A stretch of 64,000 nucleotides of DNA, from NCBI GenBank assembly GCA_914767715.1, contig OU612071.1:18720948-18784947 (forward strand), read 5' to 3'. This DNA comes from Membranipora membranacea (lineage: Eukaryota > Bryozoa > Gymnolaemata > Cheilostomatida > Membraniporidae). A program made the position numbers and the translations under genes. Shown here in pieces: positions 1 to 64,000 of the stretch. Position 1 is the stretch's first letter; each line of letters begins with the position of its first letter. The notes below the pieces were generated by a model that was not told the origin of the DNA, ran no database searches, and saw nothing but the letters and a program-made list of their open reading frames with translations.

Positions 1-700
1 ATCTTTCTATGACCTTGATAAAACCTTACTCAGCTTCACCTTTACACTTCCTGAAAGTTTAACAAAACTACAGAGCGCTCCTCAAGTGCCAGGCTGATCA
101 TAACATAACCAAATAATTAAGATACTTCAAAACACTAAGCCTAGAGTGTAAAGGAGGTTGATTGGATGCCAATGCTAAATGATGAGTAGTGTCAATCGTC
201 AGGTACACATATTTTTATTTATATTGAACCCTCATTGCTGATCAAAATGTTCCTTATAACTGGAACATTTTCATTTTTTCCGAGGTAATATGGTACATGA
301 GATACAGTCCTCTTCTTTATGAAACAGGGGCATCCACAAACCTATATTAGCTGATTGACAAGACATGCCTTTTATTATCCGAGCCTCAATGAAAAAGAGG
401 GGTCCAGGTCAGATCCAATTTCTCCCATCCCTATCCAGGTTGATAGATCACCGGATTCTGATTATGTACATGTGCTCATTTTTGGCGCCAAATACATCAC
501 AACAATTTGTTTACATTTATAAGCAAGAATGTGGTGTCATAAACAATGCCCTATCAATCTAAAATGACTGGTTTACATTCAGCAAATTTTCTCTGTAAAT
601 AGTTATTATTTTTGCAAATCATTATAGCTACATATTCTACAATATCATTATTTGATAATCCTGATGGATCTATCAGTTAAACTTTTGTTAAAAAGAATAA
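1..700. other. No gene recognised
   Basis: AT-rich intergenic sequence. Short open frames here have no recognisable motifs and no splice-site context. It lies downstream of the minus-strand histone-type 3' end at 701-764. Confidence 0.6.
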
Positions 701-764
701 AACAACTCTTTGACAAGTGTGGTGAGCACTGAAAAGGGCTGATCGGGTAGCCCTGAAAAGGGCT
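701..764 (-). terminator. Histone-type 3' end with two stem-loops and a downstream element
   Basis: Read on the minus strand there are two hairpins in a row. The first (764-749) is AGCCCT-TTTC-AGGGCT followed by ACCC, with a perfect 6-bp stem and a UUUC loop. The second (740-725) is AGCCCT-TTTC-AGTGCT, with one stem mismatch, followed by CACCACA. About ten bases further on comes TCAAAGAGTTGTT (714-702), which resembles the purine-rich histone downstream element that pairs with U7 snRNA. This is the signal set of replication-dependent histone mRNAs, but the gene upstream is not a histone. It matches the arrangement at 57725-57764. The second hairpin plus the downstream element is the likely original, and the first looks like a local duplication. 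Confidence 0.75.
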
Positions 765-782
765 GATTTTGGTTACAGCTAA

Positions 783-1277
783 TCCTACTGCTAATCAGGG
801 AACCGTCAGCGGATTGATGCTGTCACAGACTGTGGGATCTTCAGGCTAATCCATCTACCCTGGCGTCCATGTATCCACTCTGTGTAGGAACAATAGGCAG
901 CATAGCAAAACCTCTCATTCCTTGGAATCCTTTGGACATTCACGTGGTATCTGTTGTCCATTCACACTAAGTACTTTTAATAGAGAACAAACTCCTGGCG
1001 CTCCTGGCACGTTTCCCTGACTTGCTCACTCTCCTGGCATCATGTGATATCGTTATGGGAGGTAGCGTGTAATACAGGCCAACATCCAATATTAAGTACA
1101 CCAGTTGTTGTGTGCTAGCCTGTGTTGAAATAGTTGAGCTCGCTCACTCTCCCTTCGGTCCTTCTCAGCTGCACTCACTGGATCCTCTGGGACGTCACAT
1201 GCCCATGAATCGAGGTCCGGTTCATCATCGTCATAACGCACAGCAGCTCCTGGTTCTTGCTCAATTTTGGAACCCAT
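783..1277 (-). pseudogene. Decayed P2X7-C-domain gene
   Basis: The readable part starts at a Met at 1277 (MGSKIEQEPG) and runs through an acidic stretch (DDDEPDLDSW) to NNWCT, then a stop at about 1092. In other frames beyond it I read CQESEQVRETCQE and, near 890-830, AAYCSYTEWIHGRQ and TASIR, then RFPD after a stop. The order WC, CQE, YxxYxxWIHGxxG, IRxxFP is that of the P2X7 cytoplasmic ballast domain, and the same pieces occur in the intact gene at 56631-57702. At least one frameshift and several stops separate the pieces, so I call it a pseudogene. A longer upstream open frame to 1400 contains CHCNNC but may be intron. It ends with histone-type hairpins at 701-764, as the intact paralogue does. 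Confidence 0.6.
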
Positions 1278-6648: not shown

Positions 6649-8879
6649 CTCAAACCCAATTAATATTCCGAATTAATAGTTACTGGTCTCACCACTAGCA
6701 ATATAGTGTTTAAAAGACTAACTAGTAATTTTTATGTAGTGTGAATAATAATGATCTTACCTGAGTATTGGGGATATTTGTAAAAAGCCACATTCTGTGC
6801 AGGCGCGGCTCAAAAGGCCGCAATATGAGGTATTTTCGTACATTTTATTTTGTGCTCATATCCGTCAAAATAATGTGAATTATGTAGCCGGCAAAACATG
6901 GTTCAAGCTAGTCATAGAACTCAGATACTGATATTCCTTGGGAATCTGAAAAGAGTACACGCAGTTCAGCTGTCTTTCTGTCTGTGCTTAACACGGACAG
7001 GCCAAACAAATTTGTAAAGATATTTTCGATATCATGTCTACTGCTAATGTGAAATGATTGAGAGTCCTGGAATTCATCTATCTCATATCCCTGGGCTATA
7101 GAACCGAGGGAGGTCTAATCACATTTCCCAGATCATGCTCATCATTCTCCCCATGATAGCCGACGCACTATACTTCATGTCGGCTGCAGATTATGGGTGC
7201 TTTGACAGTGTCTTGCACTCGGCTGTCTGTCAAATAATATCGAAGCAACAACTCAAATACTTAAAGCTATATATTCTACGATGTCATCTCAAATAAAGAG
7301 TGAGTTCATTTCTAGCACCCCCCACAAATCTTAGAAAAAGTCTTTGCATATATTCCTGAGCTCTCATATCCAAGTCAATATCGACTCTCTACTGAGTTAA
7401 TGTCACACTCTTATGCGAAGGAAAATCAAAAGCTGTTGCTTTACCTGTTTCTTTTAATCTTACTGATGTCTTGACAGAATATCTGATAAAGCTAATGTGG
7501 AAGGCTGATATACCTCAAAGTTTCATTCCTTCCAGGCAGATATTTGGTGGCGCAATATTTTACTTGGAACTTCAAACACATATAGTTTCAATGATGATCT
7601 TTCATAATCAACGCATCATCCACCATACAGTCTGTCTTGGCTCATAAAATATGGTATACCAGATTCTTACAGTACAAGAGTTTGTTTGTTGGTACCAGCA
7701 AACAAGTTCAAAAGGAAACATTGTGAAACATGTTTAATATGAACAGCTTTTCTTATTTCTGTCCTAATATAAAATCAAAAATCTGTTGTATACTTTTGTT
7801 TCGAACACACTCATGTACGCAGGAATTGTCTTTTTCACTGTCATGAATCATTATCTAGATAATACTGTTCCAAAAACTTGGTACATGTTTTATATAGTCA
7901 TCAATGTTTCAATGGTTGCAGTCTGTAGTAAAGGGAAATATTCATTGTAATCGAGTAATGGACTTTTTAGGTTTTAGCGTCTTGCATGAGGTATTTCTAC
8001 CCTACTACAAGCCTAGTAAACCTTATATATGTATGGTAAAAAAATGGTCCTTTGAGATGAAAACTAAAGCAAGCTTACTTAGCAGTTTTAAACTTTGTAT
8101 TCAAATTAAATATTTAATATATACAATGGAAAAGCTTGGCGAGACGGCAGTATGGGAGCCTGTTGTTCACTTCATCAACTTATCAATTACTTACTCTATT
8201 GTTCTGCTGTTTGGTGATTTATTTAACCTCAAATATGCCGCTGTCAGGGTATTGGGATCATGTCTCGAGTTAAGATTAACACAGTGTAGTGTTCCAATGA
8301 TCTTATTTTGTTGCGGGCTGGTAATCCTGTTAAAAATAATTTAAAACGATGTAAACAAGTTATCAATAAAAGAATTATTTTTGTTATCTGTACACTATTA
8401 AGAAAACCTCAATAAATAATCAAAAACAGAGATAAGCAAATTTGTAAAATATAGCAATACATCACTCACATTTGTCACAGTTATAAGGCAAAGTCTTGCA
8501 CACAATGATTAAAAATTGGAGTCATTATGGTTTATGGAAATAATAATTCATTTAAATAGTTTGTAATACGTTTGAGACAAAAACTCACGATGATCGACTT
8601 CACCTAAAACAGTAGTTTTTAATGGTGTTGGATGTTATTTCTACTTGTGTACGATTGACGAGTTACGAGCAGCATTTATAAAAATACATGGAAATGGTGA
8701 TTGATAAATGTAGTCAATATCATGTCAAATGTTGGGGGTGTTAGAACTTAGAGCAACCAAACACTACTGGCTTGCACTTGCATGACCAATGTTTTATATG
8801 TAGCACCATTACAAATTTAAATAGACACAATAGTTATAAATAGTGCGAATTCATGCTTAGTGACTACCGACATACAGTG
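6649..8879. other. No gene recognised
   Basis: AT-rich sequence. A 146-codon plus-strand frame at 7904-8344 is the longest open frame, but it has no motif, poor composition and no splice context. Earlier exons of the ZMYM1-like relic may lie here but could not be read. Confidence 0.5.
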
Positions 8880-46651: not shown

Positions 46652-47580
46652 TCAGTGGTAGTAGGTTGCTGTTGATGTGGAAGTAGGAGGACTAGTTTGT
46701 GTATGGGTCTGTCGAGAAGCTGACCATTGCCAAGATGCAGCTGCATCCTTGCATAGTAGACCATGTTTGCTTGGGTAGACTGCATTTACTAGCGAGAGCT
46801 TCCATTCACATCTGGGTTGATGTGATTCAGTGAGCAGCACAACATCTCCAGGCTGAAGGTTTGGCTGAGGGGAACTCCGCTTCTGCCTAGATTGAAGATG
46901 ATGCAGATATTCCTTTATCCATCGTGAGCAGAATTGTTGAGATAGAAACTGCACCCACCGCCATCTTTTCCTAGAGTACAGGTCAGGCTCATCGAAGTCA
47001 CATGGTGGTGATGAGTGAGGTTGTCCTTTCATAGTAAGCAGCATTTACTGAGTAAGTGGAAGACGTTCTATTGTGGTTTCTTGATTCAGCTGCTCTACTG
47101 TTAGTGGTCTGGAGTTGATGATAGCCATACATTCATAGAGTAGTGTCCGGACACTAGCTGAGTTGAGTCGACATGATGATTGTTCCAGGAGAATGCCTTT
47201 CATGACATTCCTCACTGTTCTTATTAGTCTTTCCCAGCATCCGCCCATATGACTAGCCGAAGGAGAGTTGAATTTGAATTGACAGTGCTTAGACTTCAAA
47301 TAGGTTTGGGTGTCAATATCCATCATATCCTCTAGTGATTTCTTGAATTCGTTTCTTGCTCCGACAAAGTTGGTACCCTGATCGGAAAGTAGTGTCTGCA
47401 CCGGTCCACGAATAGATGTGAAACAACGGAAACTGTTGATGAAGCTGTCAGTTGTCATATCCTCTAGTAGCTCTAGATGAACGCCTCTGCTTGCTAAGCA
47501 TGTGAAAATGAGTCCATACCTCTTGCTTTCCTTCATCCATCCTCACAGCTGTAAGAATCCACAACAAAGTAAACCGCGAC
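46652..47580 (-). pseudogene. BEL/Pao retrotransposon pol fragment (integrase and C-terminal domain)
   Basis: The minus-strand frame from 47536 contains YGLIFTCLASRGVHLE, LLSDQGTNFVGA, SHMGGCWERLIRTVRNVM and INSRPLT, in the order of the integrase core of BEL/Pao elements. It is followed after an in-frame TAA (47042-47044) by DFDEPDLYSRKRWRWVQFL and LQPGDVVLL, the domain that follows the integrase in this group. Only the 3' part of pol is present. Upstream of 47536 a frameshift joins a short VDSYSCEDG piece, and homology stops near 47580. No protease or reverse transcriptase is present. It is in opposite orientation to the gag relic at 49067, so the two are probably from different insertions. 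Confidence 0.8.
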
Positions 47581-52600: not shown

Positions 52601-53228
52601 ACCTTTGCCTCCCTCAGTCCACATACCATAACATTCAGAGCTAACTCCATGCTCAGAGCATCTTTGGCCAACAAATAGAAATAGCTGAAAGCAATTCAAT
52701 CTCAATAATCACAAGGAGCGTAGTTTAGACTATGCCAATAATCAGTACTCATACAACTTGCTGTGACACCAAGCTTAGGTTTTTTTAGCATCAGTCGGCA
52801 TATTTTCAGTAGTCAGTGGTTCTGTGGATAATATGGCCTTATTCACATAACACTTCTCTCCACTTAGGCATGTAGGACAGTTGATACAAAATAATTCCTC
52901 GCTCATCTGGGGAGCGACGTTGTACATTTTTATTAGTAGCAAAGTTCTGATCTGAACCTGGGCCTCCCGCAATATAGATTTTGATGCTACCTTGCACAGC
53001 AATATCTATTCATTACAGCATATCAAATTGTATGATATTCACTAGAACTGTAAAGGCTTATACTATGGCTATACAATATCAATAATGAAAGTAATTTATT
53101 TAGCAGGCAGGGTTAATTACACAATAATGGTTGCTGGTTGGGTAATGATATATAGGTCAGTTTCTGACAATTCTAGAATTGTACAGAATTGTCAGACAAT
53201 TCTTGGGTATGAAACGCAGTGCGACAGA
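49681..53228. mobile_element. 3.5-kb palindromic non-autonomous DNA element
   Basis: Flanked by TTCAACAC at 49673-49680 and 53229-53236, an 8-bp target duplication. The left arm (49681-51128) is the reverse complement of the right arm (52011-53228), with high similarity. The left arm carries about 210 bp (near 49960-50175) that the right arm lacks. The central unique part is 51129-52010. Near each tip are two short palindromes, GAATTGTC-T-GACAATTC and ACAATTCTAGAATTGT. The outermost 10-15 bases match poorly; the inverted repeat is clear from CACTGCGTTTCATACCC inward. The duplicated short frames in the arms (for example around 50425-50727) show no known domain. An 8-bp duplication fits hAT and a few other superfamilies. 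No transposase is seen. Confidence 0.75.
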
Positions 53229-53407
53229 TTCAACACATCTAATCTACCAAGTGCAGATGAAACAAATGGAGTTCAGCAACCTCAAACCAACACCCAGGAG
53301 ATACTCAAGGCATTCACTGACAACCTGGCTGAATCTTTTAACTCTAAGCTACGGGGGATAGCTGAAAACCAACCCAAACCTTACAGAAAGTCTATGGAGC
53401 CAAATAC

Positions 53408-55680
53408 GGGTAGGTACGAAAAACCGAACCACGAACTCACGAACTACGAACCCTCTAAAAACCGAACTCAGGATTATCCTCTCCTGCTTAAATCAATTTG
53501 CTCAAAGTTTAAATTGTCAGTAGCCAATGAAATGTCATGTTTTTGATAAGTGACCAATAATATAACAGACATCAAACTTTGACTTTTAATAGAGCTCATT
53601 GCACCCTAACTAGGTGCACTAGCTCAAGGTCACTTGATGTAAAATTATGGAGAGCAAGATGGCACAGTTTGGTACACACCAAGGAAATGATGCCATTGTC
53701 AAATTAGTCATCATGAATCCAAATGAACTTTTGCATTGGAGAGAGGAATGGTTTGACTATATATATTCCTGCAAGTTTGAAAATGATGGAAGTATGAGGA
53801 GCTACTACAGAAGGCTGTAATGGAGGACACACCACACTTATTTATTAGATTGGAGCCCCTTTGACTCGTCACAGGAGGAGCAGAAGGCTGCCTCCTGAAT
53901 CATCACCTCTCAACAGAGTTAACAAGTATGTACTATGGGTGTTGGCCTATCTTGAAATATTGTTTTGAAAGTTCATGGCTGTTCTTTGGTTTCAAACAAA
54001 GCATGAGGGGGAAAGTAGGACCTCTAATATACATTAAAATTCTTCTATAAAAAATTGAGCTTATTTACTATATATATAACTATAACTGTTAACTGTTAGG
54101 TCTTACATACAGCATTTTGTGCTACTTTAAGAGATATCAGATCAGTGTTGCCTCTCTGAAATTTACATTAGCTTGATCAGGCTTCATCATCTATGAAATG
54201 ATCCTACTAGTATGAAAGTGGTTAGGCAAATACTATATATTAATCTGCATATTCTGTAATAACTAACATAAGAAATCTTGTGTTTGTAGATATCCATGCG
54301 GGCCCTTACTCATTACAACCTCAGCTATTGATTTCTCTGACTCGTACCACAGAATACAAAATTATTTTGGTCCGATGGTCAGACTAACATGCTGTACTAT
54401 AGCTGTGTAACGAAGTCAGGTTCAAGCTGTGGTGGCCCGGACTAAACTGATAATGATATTATCCTAGTCTTCTGAAACGGCCTCGTGTAAAACAACTACA
54501 TAGTAATTAAGCTGCAAGTTGGGTCAGGTATGTACCAAAGTTAATTGGTATATTATTCATTTTATCCCAGTCGAGCATGATTGATAATGTAATGTGGTGT
54601 GAGCTTCACCAGTCACCATCTAGCCATGAAAAAAGCAATTAATATTAACCGGCAATGAAGAAACAGGGAGCTTGCCTCATGCTGCCCTAAAGCTATGAGT
54701 AGAGCGCAGTGAGCAAAAAGTGAGTTTTAGATTTTAACTGCTAATATCATGACATATGATATCAAACACTTCTCTTTGAATTTGAATGTGATATTTTCTG
54801 TTTTTTTAGTTACGCAGTACCAGAAGTCACAGCACAATCCTAGTGATAGCTGTTATGCAACAGTGATGGCTTGATAGTTAGCTTACTGTCATTAACAACG
54901 TACATTGCCACTACGATTGGATAGGAACTGCTTTATGTCCCCGATGGTCTACCATCACACGTGTATTCACAGCCATGAATGCTCACACTTCAGTATTAAT
55001 CCACCTGAGCCATTACTATTCTCTCAGGCCTTTTTTTCTGCCTCTCATTTTGCCGCTTTTTCAGGCACCACAATATACAAATAAGTTCATTGAATACACG
55101 TGTAAACACCATCAACAGTCTCTTCTCTGAACCATTACCTTTATTTGAATGCGCATATAATATGTTATCTGATTGGATCACCTTATCACTCAAACAGTGC
55201 AATGATCACATAAACAGAGTATTTGCAAGCATCATTAGTAAGTAAAAGCATCACTGCGTGCATTTGTGCATAATCACTCAATTATCCAGGATCAGTCGCA
55301 CCACCATGGTAATAATCACTAAGTTTGAACTTGGTGGCTCCCAGCTCTCCGGAACCTCTGTCTCAATCTGGAAATCGTTCAGGCCATGATCTAGCCTGGT
55401 GTCTCTTCTAGAACAAAATCCCCTTCTTTGTTCAGTCGGGGACAAACTCCCTGTTCCCTTCCCACTCTCCCTGCTCATATGTCCCAAACTCTCTGCTGGG
55501 ATTGGAGTTGTCCTCTACCATTTGCCAAAGTGCAAGAGAGGATAACTGTTCATCAAAATTTTGACTTTTTGTTACAAAGAACATCATTGGCCGAAATTAT
55601 GTTATCAGACACATTGAAGGTTCGGTTTTTTAAAGGTTCGTAGCTTGTGAGTTCGTGGTTCGGTTTTTCGTACCTACCGG
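53408..55680. mobile_element. 2.3-kb TIR element without transposase
   Basis: Terminal inverted repeats of about 60 bp: the left end begins GGGTAGGTACGAAAAACCG, and the right end read backwards begins CCGGTAGGTACGAAAAACCG. The repeat continues with only a few differences to about 53467 and 55620. Both sides carry the 8-bp target duplication CCAAATAC (53400-53407 and 55681-55688). The interior has no long open frame and no recognised domain, so it is non-autonomous. The 8-bp duplication suggests hAT or a similar superfamily. Confidence 0.8.
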
Positions 55681-56308
55681 CCAAATACCTTCAGTGGGAA
55701 CACTTTAGAATTCGGAGACTGGGAAGTTGATATGGATGCTTATGTGTCTGATGAAAGTCTGTCCGACAGAGAAGCCCTGCGTTATCTCAAGAAGTTTGTT
55801 GCAGGGGATGCCAAGAAAGCCATCTTTGCACTACTGACCTACAGAAATGTAGACTCGTGAAAAGCTACGTGAGAGGTTCAGCATGCAAGGCTGAGTGGCA
55901 AGGATACTACTCCAAAAACTAGACAACTGGCCAAATATTCGGCACAGCGATGGAATGAAGATGAGAGAGTTTGGTGATTTTCTGGACCAGATAAGGAGGA
56001 GTAGGAGCTCTACAGAAGGTTTGAGGATAGTGGACACAGAGACATACAATGAAAGAATATGTCACAAGCTGCCAGACAATGCTAAGTTTGCCTGGACTCA
56101 GAAGGTATGCAGAGCTAGGAGACAAAAGATTGACCACCCCTCTTTCTCTGTTTTCACTGAGTTCATACTTGAACAAGCAGATTGTTATATGAGCAGCATC
56201 ATGCAATCTACAAGCAAAGAACAGAAGTCTGAAAACTTAAAGGAACAATACACTTCTGATCTCTGTTTGACAGCCAACGCAGCTCTGAAAAATGTATGCA
56301 GGTACTAA

Positions 56309-56630
56309 AACTCTGGTAATATAGTGTAAAAAACCCTGTTCTGCTCAAATATGCATTCAAAATTGAAGTTGTGCATCCCCAACATGAAATAAGACAACTA
56401 ATAGAATGAAGTTTTTAGCTGAAATAGTCTGCTTTTCTCAATAGGTTGTCTGCTCCTACCTGATGAATTTATACAAAGGTATCATAATGCGCATATGCAT
56501 GATGTAATATTTTCTAGCCACCCAAACATTTTGCATTTAAGCCATATCCGGGAGGTTTTTCAACAGAAATGACTTGCAGCAATCAGAGGATTTTCTGAGT
56601 TTATCAAACATTCACTGTTGAAACTAAAAG
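56309..56630. other. Upstream region of the P2X7-C gene
   Basis: AT-rich, no clear TATA box. Lies between the end of the gag relic and the ATG at 56631, so the gene's promoter borders or includes retroelement sequence. Confidence 0.4.
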
Positions 56631-57702
56631 ATGAGTTCTAAACCAACGCCGTATGCTTTTGCTCCAACCAAGAATGGCCAGAAGCTTCCTTGGGAATTGG
56701 GGATACCTGAAGATGGGAGAGTTCTGCCTCCTGTCCAAACTGGACACAGAAATACTAGTGGGAGTACAAGTACAGGATCATCATCATCTGCTACTGGGAG
56801 TGCTGACCCCTCACCTTACCGACCAGGAAGGATGTGGGAGGCCTTTAGAGAGGAACAGCATGAGCAACAACATGTTGATCAGGTAATGTTTTGTAAAATT
56901 GCTTCAAGCTTTCATATATTTTATATAACATTGATCGCATCTGCATCCATATTCACACTTACATTACATGGGTCAGATCCTATAAATCTAAAACAGCTAA
57001 GCGAATACAATCCTTATTCAGTAAGATCAAGACCACGATAGATTATGTTGCTAAATACCTATTTCAGAAGTGGTTAGAAGGGTTGCCTCAATTCTGGCAG
57101 CATGTGAAATGGTAGATACTTTTTTACTAGGGCATGATTCCAGGTTGGGGTAGTATATTGACTTCCCTTTGATTGTTATTTAGGTCGAACAAAGACCATC
57201 GCCGCCTCCACCACCGCAGGCAGATGCTGTAGTCAGGAGGAGAGATGTCTGTACCTGCCAGAGATGTCCAGCAGATATGCCAACTAGAGCTGAAAAGAAA
57301 TGTTGTATGAAAGAGGACATAGTAAAGACATATTTTGAGGGGTATCAGGAAGGTGTCTGCCTATCTACAGCTGCCGAGGTGCAACATCTACTTCATCCCA
57401 TCTCTGTCAAGACCTCATGGCTAGCACAGCGTCAATACCTTGGATATCAGGGAGAGGACTTAAACTTTGAACTGATGACGAACGAAAATTACAGATACCA
57501 CGCCTATCGGAACTATACCAAGTATATTCACGGTATATTGGGGCAGTTCAGGAGAAAAGTTGTGCCAGCCTGCATGGTGACAGCTATTCGGAATACATGG
57601 CCCTCTGAAACTTACAGAGGATTCATTGATGTCAATGAGGACGGCCAGCCTTTACCACCTGATTATGACGAATTAGAAGCTCTTGAAGGAGAACAAATCT
57701 AG
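56631..57702 (+). CDS. P2X7-C (ballast) domain protein, soluble, two exons
   Basis: Exon 1 is 56631-56882 and exon 2 is 57184-57702. The intron is GT-AG with phase 0, and the protein is 256 residues ending in TAG. Residues 1-84 are low complexity (Ser/Thr/Gly-rich, then REEQHEQQHVDQ). Residues 89-95 are a proline run. A Cys cluster follows: CTCQRC at 107-112 and CC at 124-125. Then come YRYHAYRNYTKYIHGILG (about 187-204), VVPACMVTAIRNTWP (about 210-224) and YRGF. This order of Cys-rich segment, AYR-Y---HG-LG, P-C---IR--(F/W)P and Y-GF is that of the C-terminal intracellular domain of vertebrate P2X7 receptors, which binds zinc through cysteines. No channel or membrane segment is present, as in many invertebrate proteins that carry this domain alone. 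Its function is unknown. It is followed by a histone-type 3' end at 57725, and a decayed paralogue is at 783-1277. Confidence 0.85.
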
Positions 57703-57724
57703 AAGACTCCACCACCAACCCAAC

Positions 57725-57764
57725 GGCCCTTTTCAGGGCCACCATCTCTTATCAAAGAGTTGTT
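57725..57764 (+). terminator. Histone-mRNA-type stem-loop and downstream element
   Basis: The hairpin GGCCCT-TTTC-AGGGCC (57725-57740) is preceded by CAAC and followed by ACCATC. It matches the metazoan histone stem-loop: a six-pair stem starting GG, a UUUC loop, and an ACCA tail where cleavage occurs. TCAAAGAGTTGTT at 57752-57764 resembles the purine-rich histone downstream element that pairs with U7 snRNA, at the usual distance. The hairpin starts 22 bases after the TAG of a gene that is not a histone. No AATAAA is seen close by. If used, the mRNA would be non-polyadenylated, bound by SLBP and probably limited to S phase. Confidence 0.8.
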
Positions 57765-57891
57765 CCAACATTTTTAATTGATAAAATGATCATACAGCAG
57801 CACTGTTGAAGTCATTCCATAAACAATGACATGCAATGCTAAGTATCAAATGCCCACATAGTAGGGATTTGATAACTTTCTGATTTTTATC

Positions 57892-57990
57892 TAGGTTGAA
57901 CAAAGACTAGCACAACCTCCACAGGAAGATGTTGGATGATTTTACACGCTAGATGTGTCCTGTCATTATGCTAATAAGAGCTGAACGTGG
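57892..57990 (+). pseudogene. Decayed tandem copy of P2X7-C exon 2 start
   Basis: The end of the intron and the start of exon 2 recur here. TTATCTAGGTTGAACAAAGA matches TTATTTAGGTCGAACAAAGA at 57176, then both continue with Pro codons, a GCAGATG/GAAGATG block, AGATGTCC/AGATGTGTCC, and (C/A)TAATAAGAGCTGAA against CCAACTAGAGCTGAA. A TGA after about 14 codons and later decay make it non-coding. It probably came from an unequal duplication of the gene's second exon. Confidence 0.6.
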
Positions 57991-59640
57991 TTCAAGGTCA
58001 ACAGCTGATACCAAACTGTGAAACATTTGAAGTACTTGATGCTGAGGTTAGTCAGAGTAAGTATAGTCAGCATCAAAAGACAATTTCAACAAATTCTTGC
58101 AATGGTGTACAGAATGTTGCCACTGAACATAAACTTTTACTGGCCACTGCAATATGAATGAACCATTGACTCTAGAACCAAGTTTAATGATAGAGACCCT
58201 CTGAGCGGCCATGTGCAAGTGGGTCAGTGCTGATTTAGAACTAAAATTATCTGGTGCTTCAAAACAGACAACTATTGAAGCCAATAATGTGATGAACTTT
58301 TTTTTATTATCCTGAATAATCTTTTTTTTTCAGGAAATACAGGATTCAGCGGACATACAAGACAACAAATAACACTATACATAAAGAGACACCGCTGAAA
58401 AATATGAACCCGAAATACAGCTAAACTCTTACAAAAAGTTAAAATACTATTCTGTAAAAAATGCTTATAAAATGTACACATAAAATTAGCTGCACATAAT
58501 ATCATCTTGATTTTTCCTGAGTTGCATGCAAAGTATCAAGTCAAAGAGTTATGCTTTTTACAACCATGAGAGCAAGAATTCTGAATAAAGTTACACATAT
58601 GTACAAGGTTTCCATGTTCACCACTAACACACTACAGTGAGACACGGTCGACTTATGAACACGACTTATGATTAAAACGTTATTCTGTAAAAATTATGAG
58701 TTGCTAGCGGAGAACCAAAGGCACAATCTATGTTTTCTATAAACATAAGAGCAATAATGCTGAAATAATATTGCTCATATACTACTTATTTTGCACGTAA
58801 CAAGCACGGAGTCAAATGGAAGCTTCATCTTCACAAATTCTAAAGGAATTCGTCCCAATCAGGGTTAGGATATACAGGGCTGTAACAATTATTATAGATA
58901 CAGTTCTAACTGCTAACAACGGACTTTCTCACTGTTAACACCCAATATGACGAGGTATCTATGTATCCTCGATCGCCGGGATTTGGGGAAATTTATGTAT
59001 AATAAAATTGTGATAGTGTTGTTTTGATGCTGTGCCATGCATGTGGGTGTATGTTGTGATATAATATGGTTCAGGTTCTTACGTGTGTTAACTATCCTGT
59101 CATTCATGTACGCTATTAACTCCTTCATTTGATGACAAATCACAAAACATCTGGAGAGAATCTATGATCAGTAAATTTGATGGCTCAACTAATTCCGTGT
59201 GAGACAACTGAACTACAGACGAAACCCCATCAAACCTCTCAAAGTTAACGTGAATAGAATGAGTAGTCAGGTTTCCTAGTTTTCAGATCATATTTTTCCA
59301 TCCAACTTTTTGGTGATTTGTCATCAAATATAGGAGATAAAGAATGTGGGTGTATATCTATGAGTTTTTACATCTATAGGTCCAAGTTTCAAATTTCCAT
59401 AATTGCGGAGCTTACGTTATTATAATTACTATGTAACCAGCTGCTTACTGTCATTGGTTTCTCCTCATGAAATACTTTGAGCGTCTTGTAGCTCTTCATT
59501 ATCATCCACTATTAGATTTCCCCAATAAACAAGGACGGGAGTTGCAGTAAACTATATAAGTATTTCATGAGGAAATAACAACAACAGAAGACACTCAATT
59601 TCCAGCCTAGTATAAGTAATCACTTTTTATTTAGCTGCTC
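57991..59640. other. No gene recognised
   Basis: AT-rich intergenic DNA. A short inverted pair, CTCATGAAATACTT at about 59466 and AAGTATTTCATGAGGAAAT near 59555, could bound a ~115-bp MITE. No coding pattern. Confidence 0.45.
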
Positions 59641-59908
59641 TCCAGCATCTTTACATGAATATAATGATACAGATACAGATACATATAAGATCGATGATAC
59701 AAGATACATAAGATACATGAAACACAAGATTGATGATACATGATACGACTCATCTAATTAGCGCACCCTTGTACAATGTAAGGGTGGGCAAGCTAGGCCA
59801 TTGATCGGAGAGCTCACCTCCTTCAGCAGAATGGGTAGTGACCGGGATTCGAACCTGCAACTCTCAGATTGAGAAGTTCGAATCCTAACCGCTACACCAC
59901 CCGGCCTG
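59641..59908 (-). repeat. tRNA-derived SINE with (GATAC)n-type tail
   Basis: On the minus strand the A box TGGTGTAGCGGTTA (59899-59886) and B box GGTTCGAATCC (59854-59844) form a tRNA-like head within GGCCGGGTGGTGTAGCGG. The 3' end at 59641-59755 is an irregular GATACA-type microsatellite, likely the SINE tail. The head differs from the SINE families at 11940 and 28946. A working tRNA is unlikely because the acceptor halves do not pair. Confidence 0.65.
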
Positions 59909-60223
59909 TAATTTCAATATTGTAAGCTCTGGCGTTATGTCATCTTGAATGAGGGATTCCAAAACTAATTCTTCTAGCTCATAATTTCGACACACTGTTT
60001 CAGTTAATTTGAAATTTGGACCCAAATATGAAAAAATACATGGATAGTCCGAATAAGATAAACTCCCATAGTCAGGCCTCCCTCCCTCCCTCCCACATCC
60101 ATAATTGAGTATATGAATGACATGATAATTAGCACGTTAAACAACCAGAATAATATTGCATTACAACAATCACTTACAAACATGGCTAAGCATCAATGCA
60201 ATAATATTACAATTTTATTTTAC
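59909..60223. other. No gene recognised
   Basis: Short gap between the SINE and the likely poly(A) signal of the minus-strand gene. Contains a (CTCC)n run near 60078. Nothing else is seen. Confidence 0.5.
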
Positions 60224-60229
60224 ATGAAG
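60224..60229 (-). terminator. Possible poly(A) signal of the transposase-like gene
   Basis: AATAAA on the minus strand, about 310 bases after the TGA at 60538-60540. Confidence 0.35.
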
Positions 60230-60537
60230 TTTCCCAGTTCTTGACCATTGAGGCAGCATATAAACCTCGTCATATTTTGTGCAGGGTGTATAATAGTACA
60301 AAAGCAGCTTTTAGCAATGAGAAAGTATGTTGTTAGCAGTAAGAATTGTCATCTATAATTATTCTTAGAGCACTACAAATCATAGCACTGAATTGTAATG
60401 ACTTCTTTTAGAATTTGTCATGATAAATCTAACCTTCAATTCTATGTCTGTCATGGGCAAAACTTGTAGTGATATGCACAAGGTTGTCTACAGGTGAACA
60501 TGTTACATGGTGAAATTGTGCTGACCAGATTACTGCC

Positions 60538-63451
60538 TCAAAATCTCTTATACTTCAGGTAGTCTGCTTTCAGCGCCTCAAACTCCGGCTTAGGGGTGTC
60601 CTTGCTAAGTCGTGCTCCTCTATCCTGAAAAAAAAAAATTGAATGCTTTGTATGTTGGCATAATACTGTAAGGTTTTGTATTTATGTGGTATGACGGCAG
60701 CAATGAAGATACAAAGTTTTGTACCATGTCCACTTTGGGTTTCCAAATGAAGACAATGCCATGTTGATCAACATTGACGACCGCAGTATACACACACATA
60801 ATTTCTAATGCCCTATTATCAAGTATTGAGTATTACATCAAAGCTATAAAAGCAATGGTGCTCAACTTACTGGTTGCAATGGAGCCTTTGGATATATACC
60901 CTCCGCATCAGTAAGGATGTCGGCCAATTTATCCTTCCTGAAGTTGTAGGTCTTGGGGACGTATACTGGACGCATCCGGAAACTCTTAGCACTTTTAGTG
61001 TATACCATACGGAGCTTTGGGGTTCCATCTTCCTCTAAAGTATAGTAAACAAAGATGTTGCTCTGAGTATTATTATTACATTACAACAAACGGGTACAAC
61101 ACTGATCGACAACACACAAAAAAGACTGTTGACAAGAGATTTTTTGTGCTGACATTGAATTTTTGATTTTCCCAATAATTCAGTGTATACCAAGGGTTCG
61201 GTTCTGGACTTTTCAAAAAAATTGTGCGTTGAGAAAAATGCAAAAAATTTTCTGATGGGTGCAACTTACCATATATCACTGTCCTTGAGCAGTTCTCATT
61301 GTGGTCCATGAGAGCCAGCTGAACACGAGCGTTGTAGCTGGGAGGGTCGTAATCCACCCGCTTGCTGACATAGGCAAGGAACAGAGAATGAAGAACCTCC
61401 AACTTTCCTGTATGAACTCCGTGAGTACAGAGCCTGAGTTGGTCAAGGAACGGCTTAGACTGGATGTGCTGAACTAACACCTGATGTGCCGCATCTCCAG
61501 CTTTGAGAAATTTCACTTCTCTCTCCTCATTACTGCAAAACAGATATTGGATCAGATGATTAGTATTACACAGATAATACAATAAGAAAAGAATTTAAAG
61601 TTTACCATTACAATAGAGACACACCCAAAGACACATGAACTTCTTAACCATTAGATCCTTCCTATAAACTGCAAACTCATTTGAATTTCTCAATGCTAGA
61701 TGGTTTTAATAGTTATTTGTCAACCAGGGACTTTCTTTATGGAATTATGTATCCAAGCAAATGCAAGACTGTACAAACCAGCCTTTTCATCTCTAGCTGT
61801 TTTTTGCAACTGTTCCAAGCAAAGCAGCAGCCATGTATTTATTAGTGAGAAAACAAATTAGTGTGAATTGTACTCACTTGGATAGTTCAGGATGAGCCCA
61901 TTTGGTGAACAGCTCATGTCCTGGAAAAGCAGCGTGTCTGTTGGTAACATGAAAGTTCATGCTGAGGACCATCTCCCTCAGTTTCTTTTCGTCCACCTCG
62001 CAACTAGCAGCACTCCACCAAACATGGTTTGTGAGGTGTTGGATCCAGCCAGTCAGAGCTCTAGATGCCTGATTGAAAAAGATAAAACAAACTTTTATCT
62101 TGTATGCCAGCGTTGGGATGCAGCTGTTAATAGTTGTGTGTTTATTCTGTATCGCTGCCACTGACACGCTGACATTACAGTTACACAATCTGTATGACGC
62201 CTTGACCGCACCATCTTCATGCATAATATTCTTATAGGTATCGAATAGGTTTTGGAATTTGAAATGGTATTGAATTTATTTCTGTGTTTTTTATGAATCA
62301 TGTTTTCAATATCAATGTAGTACGGCGCATGATGTGTAGCGGGAATATAATGTACTCACAGCAGTTTTAGCTTTTTTGGCAAGGTTTTTGCCAAGATTCT
62401 TGCACAAATGCCAAACATCTAGGCCGTGTTTGACTGCTGTCTCCAATCTCATGTAGGCCCGGATCGACAGATTCCCATCTGTGGTCACTGATCTGAGGTT
62501 GAACAGCTTCTTGGCAGCTTGGTACAAGGTAACAAAAGCCTCCTTCTCACTGGCAACAGCTGATGACCTAGTGGCCGTCTCTACAGTGAGGTTATGTGTC
62601 ACCTTTCCACTAGCCTTCAAAACAAAATTAAAAATCAATATAACAACAATAGAGACCCTTGACTTTCTCACAAACATGTACATAATGGTTTTACTATTAT
62701 TAATTGACATTGTGTAAAATATAAACTGTATTGTGACTGTGATATTGAATGTGAGTTAGACAGCAGAAGGGTAGAAATCTAACTCGGGGCTTCTAAAATT
62801 CACACCATTTATGTGTTTGACTGTATGGATTTTTAAAGATTGTTTACCAAGCTCAGGTCTTACTGCATTTTGGTAATTATTGTCGCTTTATTTAGGCTGT
62901 GGTGTTATCGCTGCCTGTTATGTTCATATCACAGAATATGTTGAATACTGAACACTGCTAAACCAAGACTTTCTGAGTAAGATAAATAATCCATGTCGGA
63001 TATCTACACTTACAGAGTCCATGAGAGTGTAGGTGCAGTATCTGGCTGAGTGACCTGGACTATCATATCGTCCGTCTCCAGATAAGTCAACAGGCTCACC
63101 TGGTAAAATGTATAAATAACGTTGGAAACATTTAGGTAAAATAGTGAAAATATAACAGGTAGAATCAATGTTAGAAGGACACAGGGACCCCACACAACTA
63201 TTTAAAACTTCTGTGAACAACTTGCTCTCACAGAAAATTTTAAATATTAATTTAGTTATGTATGAGATATAGAGTAGGAAATATTACCTCTGGCTATAAC
63301 CTCTTCTCGAGCTTTCTCTAGGGACAGTTTGACATGTCTCTGTATCTGGGGTATAATATGCTGCCTCTGGTACTTGTAAAAGGTCGTCGCCGACACAAAC
63401 TGCAGATCAAGCAGTTGGAAAAACTTCTGAATACCTCCGAACATCTGCCCA
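60538..63451 (-). CDS. Intron-containing transposase-like gene, 5' part outside the window
   Basis: Seven minus-strand exons join in phase with GT-AG introns: 63451-63288, 63099-63014, 62614-62360, 62068-61878, 61532-61270, 61034-60871 and 60624-60538, ending in TGA. Signatures in order are FVSATTFYKYQRQHIIPQI, SGDGRYDSPGHSARYCTYT, RSVTTDGNLSIRAYMR, HGLDVWHLCKNLGKNLAKK, GKLEVLHSLFLAYVSKR, YNARVQLALMDHN, and a basic C-terminus (YLKYKRF). The DGR-DSPGH, TDG and DVWH blocks look like the spaced acidic residues of a DDE-type nuclease. Proteins of this family are widespread and uncharacterised in fishes and invertebrates. I associate them with Kolobok-type transposases, but that assignment is not certain. 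All readable residues are intact, with no stop or frameshift. The first exon here starts in mid-codon, so at least one earlier exon, perhaps with a DNA-binding domain, lies upstream. Confidence 0.8.
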
Positions 63452-64000
63452 CTGTGAAGTACAAAAATAACTGTTCAGTATGGGTGTAAATATCGAAAAG
63501 CACCAATGACCACAAAATTCATCCTGTTTATGTCTTCAAGGACATGTAAACATGAAAGAAAGACCAAATTTTTTGTTACTATTGTAATTGAAGTGTTAGT
63601 TGAGTATAATCAGGCAAGTTTGGAGGTGACTGAATAAAACCTAGGACTAATCTTTGGCTAGCTGCGGGGAGGGGGCAAGTCTATATGGAATGTAATCAAT
63701 TTAGCATATCTAAATTATTGGAAAATAACAAACTTTTTTTCCTGCAAATACTATACTCATCAGAGGTATGTCATTGATGGCCCCACGTACATGAGAATTC
63801 AACATTCAATAATTATTGCATTATAATGTCAAATTCTTGGTTCAATTTTCCACCAGTTTGATGCCAGCACTAGGTCTACAACTTATACTTTGTTGCTAGT
63901 TGCATCTAGTCAAGGTTCTCTGCAAAGCAATATTACATAGCTAACAATTGTACTGCAACACAATTATATCTAACATTGTGATAAAGATAAGGTGGTTATG
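63452..64000. other. Upstream intron of the transposase-like gene
   Basis: No exon could be recognised on the minus strand between 63452 and the window edge. The acceptor at 63452-63453 needs an upstream exon, so this is probably intron. Confidence 0.5.

What the first reader, a model, noticed from the sequence alone, without database searches (positions are those of the whole stretch)
56631..57764. A non-histone gene ends with a complete histone-type 3' processing signal
Seen: 22 bases after the stop of a P2X7-C-domain gene lies GGCCCTTTTCAGGGCC followed by ACCA, then TCAAAGAGTTGTT. Known: this hairpin plus a purine-rich U7-pairing element is the hallmark of replication-dependent histone mRNAs, and very few other metazoan genes have it. 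Inference: the mRNA is probably made without a poly(A) tail and tied to S phase, which would be an undescribed link between this domain family and the cell cycle. This gene also has an intron, unlike most replication-dependent histone genes.
Basis: partly seen in the sequence, partly recalled or inferred. Interest (0 to 1): 0.88.

Follow-up and report, generated by a model that had tools for sequence, protein, structure and literature searches.

The report
Transposon genes with histone-type mRNA endings
The gene is not a lone receptor-like gene but the accessory gene of a jumping DNA element, and it, like genes of several other jumping elements in the same animal genome, ends with the signal that normally marks histone messages made during DNA copying, suggesting that these elements tie part of their activity to S phase.

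Summary
Observation confirmed. GGCCCTTTTCAGGGCC (57725-57740), ACCA and TCAAAGAGTTGTT form the only Rfam Histone3 gathering hit of the window (37.4 bits). In the window's own 339-Mb genome, 48 of 50 histone genes found have the identical hairpin and 39 of 50 AAAGAGTTGTT; the gene's 41-nt signal differs by one base from a string found in seven of them.

The interpretation needs changing. The gene is KolX, the accessory gene of an 11.1-kb Kolobok (Kol0-type) DNA transposon: TTAA on both sides, 389-bp terminal repeats, a convergent THAP transposase gene without the hairpin. Of 73 genome hits, 50 are histone genes, 20 lie in four dispersed transposon families (this one 2; a second KolX family 10, nine of them slightly under Rfam's cut-off; a third TTAA family 5; a P-element-like one 3), 3 are unassigned. 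Between the first three families the signal is the only DNA match found.

Most likely these mRNAs are cut by the host histone machinery, unpolyadenylated and S-phase-bound. The signal is shown; processing and timing are inferred. Copies without the hairpin could not be counted. My literature searches found no such report.

The parts
56237..64000 (.). Kolobok (Kol0-type) DNA transposon, family A; the element proper starts at 56241 after TTAA and runs on to window-equivalent 67375 (rest in L009)
   Evidence: Boundary where copy L011 and the window begin to match; TTAA on both sides; inverted copy of the left end at 66992-67379
56237..56624 (+). left terminal inverted repeat (TTAA included); partner arm at window-equivalent 66992-67379
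   Evidence: 389-column match at 94.3% between the L011 left end and the reverse complement of the right end; the window's left end matches L011 from 56236 on
56631..56882 (+). KolX exon 1
   Evidence: open frame, GT donor at 56883
57184..57702 (+). KolX exon 2 with most of the P2RX7_C (ballast, zinc-cysteine) domain and stop TAG 57700-57702
   Evidence: Pfam PF20478 E 1.1e-08 on the spliced protein, residues 76-231
57725..57740 (+). histone-type hairpin, 6-bp stem and 4-nt loop
   Evidence: Rfam RF00032; fold -16.1 kcal/mol for 57703-57768, z -3.66, of which part is a second helix between the spacer and the downstream element
57741..57744 (+). ACCA, expected cleavage site just after it (inferred)
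   Evidence: sequence; cleavage position from recalled knowledge of histone pre-mRNA processing
57752..57764 (+). purine-rich U7-type downstream element TCAAAGAGTTGTT
   Evidence: AAAGAGTTGTT stands after the hairpin of 39 of 50 host histone genes
60537..63474 (-). 3' exons of the Kolobok transposase gene KolT (about 63445-63288, 63099-63017, 62614-62363, 62068-61880, 61532-61272, 61034-60873, 60623-60537), convergent with KolX; the THAP exon lies beyond the window at about 66968-66648
   Evidence: Mutator-like PF20700 26.4 bits, just under its cut-off of 26.5, and THAP PF05485 E 5.5e-10; exon borders read by eye; no hairpin at its 3' end
688..1275 (-). decayed relic of another KolX-like gene followed by two tandem histone-type hairpins (764-749; 740-725, the latter with one unpaired position) and the same TCAAAGAGTTGTT (713-701)
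   Evidence: tblastn to KolX 919-797, weak, E 0.003; 45% over 42 aa to the second KolX family, E 4.5e-07; 43/53 identity to the target 3' UTR. No transposase match nearby. Below Rfam's reporting level at E up to 1

Best explanation
The gene is KolX of a Kolobok DNA transposon, and its 3' end is a working host-type replication-dependent histone processing signal. Shown: the element, its ends, its two convergent genes, and a 3' signal that matches the host's histone genes. Inferred: (1) nascent KolX RNA is bound by SLBP at the hairpin and by U7 snRNP at AAAGAGTTGTT and is cut after ACCA, giving an unpolyadenylated mRNA; (2) like histone mRNA it accumulates in S phase and falls when DNA synthesis stops; (3) the transposase gene, which starts just inside the other, nearly identical terminal repeat but lacks the hairpin, is polyadenylated, so the two mRNAs share promoter sequence but differ in 3' end; (4) KolX is therefore the S-phase-limited partner that restricts transposition to the time when a sister copy exists to refill the gap, or when the unreplicated part of the genome can still be hit, so that cut-and-paste movement raises copy number. 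Oocytes and early embryos, rich in histone-processing factors (recalled), would be a favourable setting.
For: Element ends, TTAA and terminal repeats; KolX and THAP/Mutator-like matches; published definition of Kol0 with KolX and TTAA (PMC9587614, passages). The 41-nt signal of copy L011 is letter for letter that of seven histone genes (six H2B, one H1) and the target differs from it by one base. In families A, B and C, unlike each other in DNA elsewhere, hairpin plus downstream element is the only pairwise match at E up to 1e-3 (A-B 87.5% of 48, A-C 83.0% of 53, B-C 79.2% of 53). Stop-to-hairpin 22 and 19 (A), 31 (B), 15 nt (C) against 24, 29 and 31 for one H2B, H3 and H4. Stem-keeping changes on both sides in family D and in the relic. 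No AATAAA/ATTAAA within 500 nt after the hairpins of A and B. The relic at 919-797 was found by protein similarity, not by its hairpin, and still has the signal.
Against: No RNA evidence. KolX of family A has an intron, which histone genes lack (B and C read as single open frames). The downstream element is exact only in A and the relic: B has AAAGAGTTTGTT, C AAAGAGATTGTT, D AAAGAGTCGCTGTT. Nine of ten B hits score 33.4, under Rfam's 34. D matches A, B and C nowhere, and its stop is unsettled: the frame ends 99 nt before the hairpin in L014 and L016 but runs through it in L015. No U7 snRNA was found, but the controls were silent too. Copy L011 has lost its KolX frame in exon 1. One H2B also has AATAAA after its hairpin, so that point discriminates weakly. 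One covariation measure, further pair types, did not exceed its shuffles (480 of 500 reached it).
Confidence: 0.66

Rival explanations
1. The signal was captured from a host histone gene (most like H2B) and is carried along without use; the mRNA is polyadenylated further on.
For: Six of the seven host genes with exactly the 41-nt string of L011 are H2B (L002); some animal histone transcripts pass such hairpins (recalled).
Against: The signal is the only DNA similarity left between families A, B and C, stands in sense after the stop in each of them, and is kept in a relic whose coding part has decayed. No poly(A) hexamer within 500 nt after A and B.
Confidence: 0.18
2. KolX at this place is a domesticated host gene (a nanor-like gene) with its own S-phase role, no longer part of a mobile element.
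For: The frame is open and spliced; Nanor is proposed to be a domesticated KolX (PMC9587614 passages).
Against: TTAA ends, 94% identical terminal repeats, a transposase gene inside, and a copy on another contig that is 97.6-98.2% identical over two long blocks speak for a recent mobile element.
Confidence: 0.08
3. The hairpin serves a transposon DNA function (transposase or hairpin binding) and only looks like the histone signal.
For: It is a palindrome inside a transposon.
Against: It carries the host-type downstream element and spacing, lies at one site after a gene and not at the ends, and is the same hairpin as in 48 of 50 host histone genes.
Confidence: 0.04

Closest known systems
Kol0-lineage Kolobok DNA transposons (Kolobok-1_XT type, with KolX)
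   Same: TTAA targets, 5'-AG...CT-3' ends, THAP transposase, KolX with the P2X7 ballast domain
   Different: a histone-type 3' end on KolX is not mentioned: 'histone' and 'stem-loop' occur 0 times in the main text of PMC9587614 and of PMC6004289
Replication-dependent histone mRNAs
   Same: hairpin, ACCA, AAAGAGTTGTT, spacing and stop-to-hairpin distance as in this host's own histone genes
   Different: codes for no histone; lies in a mobile element; has an intron
P2X7 receptor and Nanor-like ballast (ZCD) genes
   Same: zinc-cysteine ballast domain; P2X7 chains of the PDB match the profile of A1, best E 6.8e-07 (PMC7016195 sections 10 and 11 read)
   Different: no P2X channel part; inside a transposon
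P-element/THAP9-like transposons (family D here)
   Same: TNP-like RNase H N-terminal domain PF21787, 25.8 bits over the cut-off of 24.6, on a protein joined by hand from frames of one copy
   Different: the transposase gene itself is followed by the hairpin; not known to me for P elements (recalled)

Membership tests
Kolobok superfamily, Kol0 lineage | TTAA target site duplication | tested here: met
   TTAA on both sides of the window element
Kolobok superfamily, Kol0 lineage | 5'-RR and YY-3' termini with terminal inverted repeats | tested here: met
   TTAA|AGGAAC...GTTCCT|TTAA, 389-column repeat at 94.3%
Kolobok superfamily, Kol0 lineage | transposase with THAP domain | tested here: met
   PF05485 40.3 bits, cut-off 23.9
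Kolobok superfamily, Kol0 lineage | DDD/E catalytic domain with C/DxxH signature, H2CH motif | tested here: inconclusive
   PF20700 Mutator-like 26.4 bits, just under its cut-off of 26.5, on exons joined by hand; DVWH seen by eye; catalytic residues and H2CH not mapped
Kolobok superfamily, Kol0 lineage | second protein KolX with ballast fold | tested here: met
   PF20478 35.7 bits, cut-off 23.5; the fold itself was not predicted
replication-dependent histone-type 3' end | conserved hairpin | tested here: met
   Rfam RF00032 37.4 bits, gathering score 34; identical to the hairpin of 48 of 50 host histone genes
replication-dependent histone-type 3' end | U7-pairing purine-rich element as in the host's histone genes | tested here: met
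   AAAGAGTTGTT as in 39 of 50 host histone genes; in families B, C and D it is altered by a few bases
replication-dependent histone-type 3' end | complementarity to the host's own U7 snRNA | tested here: inconclusive
   U7 not found by Rfam model; the controls were silent too; pattern searches unanswered
replication-dependent histone-type 3' end | mRNA without poly(A), S-phase regulated, SLBP bound | not testable with these tools
   no RNA data at hand
replication-dependent histone genes | codes for a histone, no intron | tested here: not met
   P2RX7_C protein; 301-nt intron; no core histone gene in the window, best tblastn E 0.033
P2X7 receptor | P2X channel domain | tested here: not met
   only P2RX7_C matched in the spliced protein

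The most novel reading that the evidence does not exclude
Several DNA transposon lineages of one animal genome (three TTAA lineages with a KolX-like or accessory gene, and a P-element-like transposase) put one of their genes under the host's replication-dependent histone mRNA pathway, so that its product exists only while DNA is being copied: a mobile-element cell-cycle clock built from the histone 3' end, possibly inherited as an old feature of KolX genes and so perhaps present in the ancestors of Nanor and of the P2X7 tail.
Probability: 0.5. Interest if true: 0.93.

Novelty: new variant of a known kind. Interest (0 to 1): 0.86.

Why it matters
The histone hairpin is generally treated as the private mark of histone mRNAs (recalled). 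Here 20 of 73 hits in one genome lie in transposons. If functional, it gives a direct, testable mechanism for a long-standing question: how cut-and-paste elements confine themselves to S phase, when excision can raise copy number. It would also explain why such mRNAs would escape poly(A)-selected RNA sequencing, and it offers natural non-histone substrates for studying SLBP and U7.

Tried and rejected
Rejected: the hairpin as chance; a histone gene close by donating its 3' end (no core histone gene in the window); a lone P2X7-like host gene (element ends).

Led nowhere: related loci in viral contigs and genome contigs gave no relative; protein searches found 4 and 10 relatives (in one search only the 7987 candidates sharing most words were scored), but no DNA of theirs could be read, so 3' ends in other species are untested; U7 by Rfam gave nothing, controls included; NCBIfam gave nothing for 3 proteins. 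Four papers were opened: PMC7016195 (outline, sections 10 and 11), PMC9587614 (outline and passages), PMC4124161 and PMC6004289 (passages). bioRxiv and most subscription papers are not held. The left ends of families C and D were not found within the stretches read. Three hits stay unassigned: L018 (two, in a 665-bp tandem duplication) and L028.

Known weaknesses: 73 is a lower bound (one search scored 75 of 69,523 first-look candidates), and one of its 14 control genomes, a bacterium, gave a match under the cut-off; the 20 transposon loci were found through the hairpin. H1 assignments (L012, L020, L037) are by reading the sequence. In one search some exons of the transposase query stood in a wrong frame; one search used frames corrected by hand. 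In one search the tblastn step gave no assignments (a wrong option, as I take it); it was run again. In one search the '0 exact' line is an artefact of slice length (41 against 42 letters), replaced. The model R1 was built from the sequences it then matched; only its silence at the transposase 3' ends is used. In one search the two A-U cells are the relic's two tandem hairpins, so they may be one event.

Full report
Observation. The hairpin GGCCCTTTTCAGGGCC lies at 57725-57740, 22 bases after the TAG at 57700-57702, followed by ACCA and by TCAAAGAGTTGTT at 57752-57764. Rfam Histone3 matches 57720-57764 over its whole length with 37.4 bits (gathering score 34) and is the only gathering-level hit of the window; at E up to 1 three more matches, to other families and under their gathering scores, appear. 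The upstream gene has two exons (56631-56882 and 57184-57702, GT/AG intron) and codes for 256 residues with the P2RX7_C domain.

What the gene is. Kojima and Bao (PMC9587614; passages seen) report that the KolX protein of Kol0-type Kolobok DNA transposons has the P2X7 ballast fold and that Nanor is probably a domesticated KolX. I tested this. A copy on another contig (L011, C3:22.93 Mb) matches the window from 56236 on, in two long blocks at 97.6 and 98.2%; its first 388 bases also match, inverted, window-equivalent 67379-66992. The element is bounded by TTAA on both sides, begins 5'-AGGAAC, measures 11.1 kb, and continues 3.4 kb beyond the window (L009). On the opposite strand, convergent with KolX, lies a spliced transposase gene: a THAP domain (E 5.5e-10) and a Mutator-like transposase match (26.4 bits, just under its cut-off of 26.5). 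TTAA, RR/YY ends and KolX are given for Kol0 Kolobok in PMC9587614, THAP, DDE and H2CH motifs for Kolobok transposases in PMC6004289 (passages). Catalytic residues were not mapped. KolX starts just inside the left terminal repeat and the THAP frame just inside the right one, so both genes appear to start from near-identical sequence (inference).

The host's histone signal. A search of the window's own genome with Histone3 gave 73 matches, 61 over the gathering score (75 of 69,523 first-look candidates were scored, so this is a lower bound; 1 of 14 control genomes, a bacterium, gave a match under the cut-off). I fetched DNA at all 73. Fifty are histone genes: 47 core histones by tblastn (39 of the 42 short pieces, of which 2 more were KolX-B and 1 unmatched; eight genes) and three H1 by reading (L012, L020, L037). 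Of the 50, 48 have exactly GGCCCTTTTCAGGGCC and 39 have exactly AAAGAGTTGTT within 34 nt after it. A 41-nt string of the KolX copy L011 is found letter for letter in seven histone genes (six H2B, one H1), and the window's KolX differs from it by one base.

Transposons. Twenty of the 73 hits lie in four dispersed repeat families; 11 of these 20 are over Rfam's cut-off and nine, all of family B, score 33.4 against 34. A: this element (window, L011). B: a 7.26-kb TTAA element with KolX-B (PF20478, E 8.2e-09) and a convergent transposase-like gene (tblastn to the A transposase; THAP 22.4 bits, under its cut-off of 23.9), ten copies (L017, L021-L027, L073, L074). C: five copies (L004-L008) with a TTAA right end, a 261-aa open frame with no Pfam match whose tail resembles the ballast domain by eye (frame interrupted in L004), and on the other strand a PF20700 transposase piece, 28.2 bits over the cut-off of 26.5. 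D: three copies (L014-L016) in which a P-element-like transposase (PF21787) itself is followed by the hairpin; its frame ends 99 nt before the hairpin in L014 and L016 but runs through it in L015. Three hits (L018 twice, L028) follow unidentified non-histone sequence.

Selection. Comparing elements A, B and C pairwise with blastn at E up to 1e-3, as far as C was read, the only match is the hairpin plus downstream element (A-B 48 nt at 87.5%, A-C 53 nt at 83.0%, B-C 53 nt at 79.2%); D matches none of them. The downstream element is altered in B (AAAGAGTTTGTT), C (AAAGAGATTGTT) and D (AAAGAGTCGCTGTT). Stop-to-hairpin distances are 22 and 19 nt (A), 31 (B) and 15 (C), against 24, 29 and 31 in one H2B, H3 and H4. 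On 21 chosen sequences, 99.2% of pair cells are standard, and two pairs change on both sides while still pairing (family D; the relic, whose two hairpins may be one event); the count of further pair types did not exceed shuffles. At the other end of the window a KolX-like relic, found by weak protein similarity (E 0.003) and not by hairpin, has two tandem hairpins, one with an unpaired position, and the same TCAAAGAGTTGTT. The hairpin model made here finds no such site at the transposase 3' ends of A and of B copy L022. No AATAAA or ATTAAA lies within 500 nt after the hairpins of A and B, while AATAAA lies 318 nt after the transposase stop of A; but one H2B also has AATAAA after its hairpin.

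Limits. The 20 transposon loci were found because they have the hairpin. The protein, Pfam, DNA and pattern searches that would count KolX copies without it did not complete. The U7 search gave nothing, controls included. No other species' DNA could be read. No RNA data were available. L011's KolX has lost its frame in exon 1; the window's reads open.

How it most likely works. Host SLBP and U7 snRNP would process KolX RNA after ACCA; the mRNA would be unpolyadenylated and confined to S phase, whereas the transposase mRNA is not. KolX would then license transposition during replication. Steps up to the presence of a host-type signal are shown; processing and timing are inferred from the known histone pathway; the role of KolX is a proposal. 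Expression of nanor from the midblastula transition, cited in PMC9587614 and in PMC4124161 (passages), fits an early-embryo setting but is indirect.

Known or new. Kolobok, KolX and its kinship to P2X7 are known (PMC9587614; PMC7016195 sections 10 and 11 read). In searches 'SLBP' + 'DNA transposon' (3 papers) and 'histone stem-loop' + 'transpos' (2 papers), none looked relevant by title and abstract start. I therefore rate it a new variant: known transposon, known RNA signal, an apparently undescribed combination in several families.

Noticed in passing
L018 (C1:8.265 Mb), hairpins at 6838 and 6164 (minus): A non-histone open frame ending ...CTTPVKVKLD is followed by the same type of hairpin; a 665-bp tandem duplication carries a second hairpin. 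No Pfam match.
   Followed up: partly
L028 (C8:12.55 Mb), 2952: A single hairpin plus CGAAGAGTTGTT after non-histone sequence, 32.7 bits (under Rfam's cut-off), without a Pfam match; among the loci fetched only short pieces of it match anything.
   Followed up: partly
window 57881-57922: A partial second copy (81%) of the KolX exon-2 acceptor region (57170-57211) lies about 140 bases downstream of the hairpin.
   Followed up: no
window 46652-47536 (-), 53085-56308 (+): Pieces of retroelement-like genes: an rve integrase match (25 bits, under its cut-off of 32.6) and DUF5641 on the minus strand, and gag-like frames by eye on the plus strand; the last plus-strand frame runs into the Kolobok left end.
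   Followed up: no
window 56525-56540: ATTTTGCATTT upstream of KolX resembles the ATTTGCAT octamer in the H2A/H2B intergenic region of L002; may be chance.
   Followed up: no
L014 5767-4274 (-): A 498-aa open frame, the first 147 residues of which gave a UvrD_C_2 helicase match (25.5 bits, under the cut-off of 27.4), downstream of the family D hairpin in L014, in a stretch shared with L016 but not L015.
   Followed up: no
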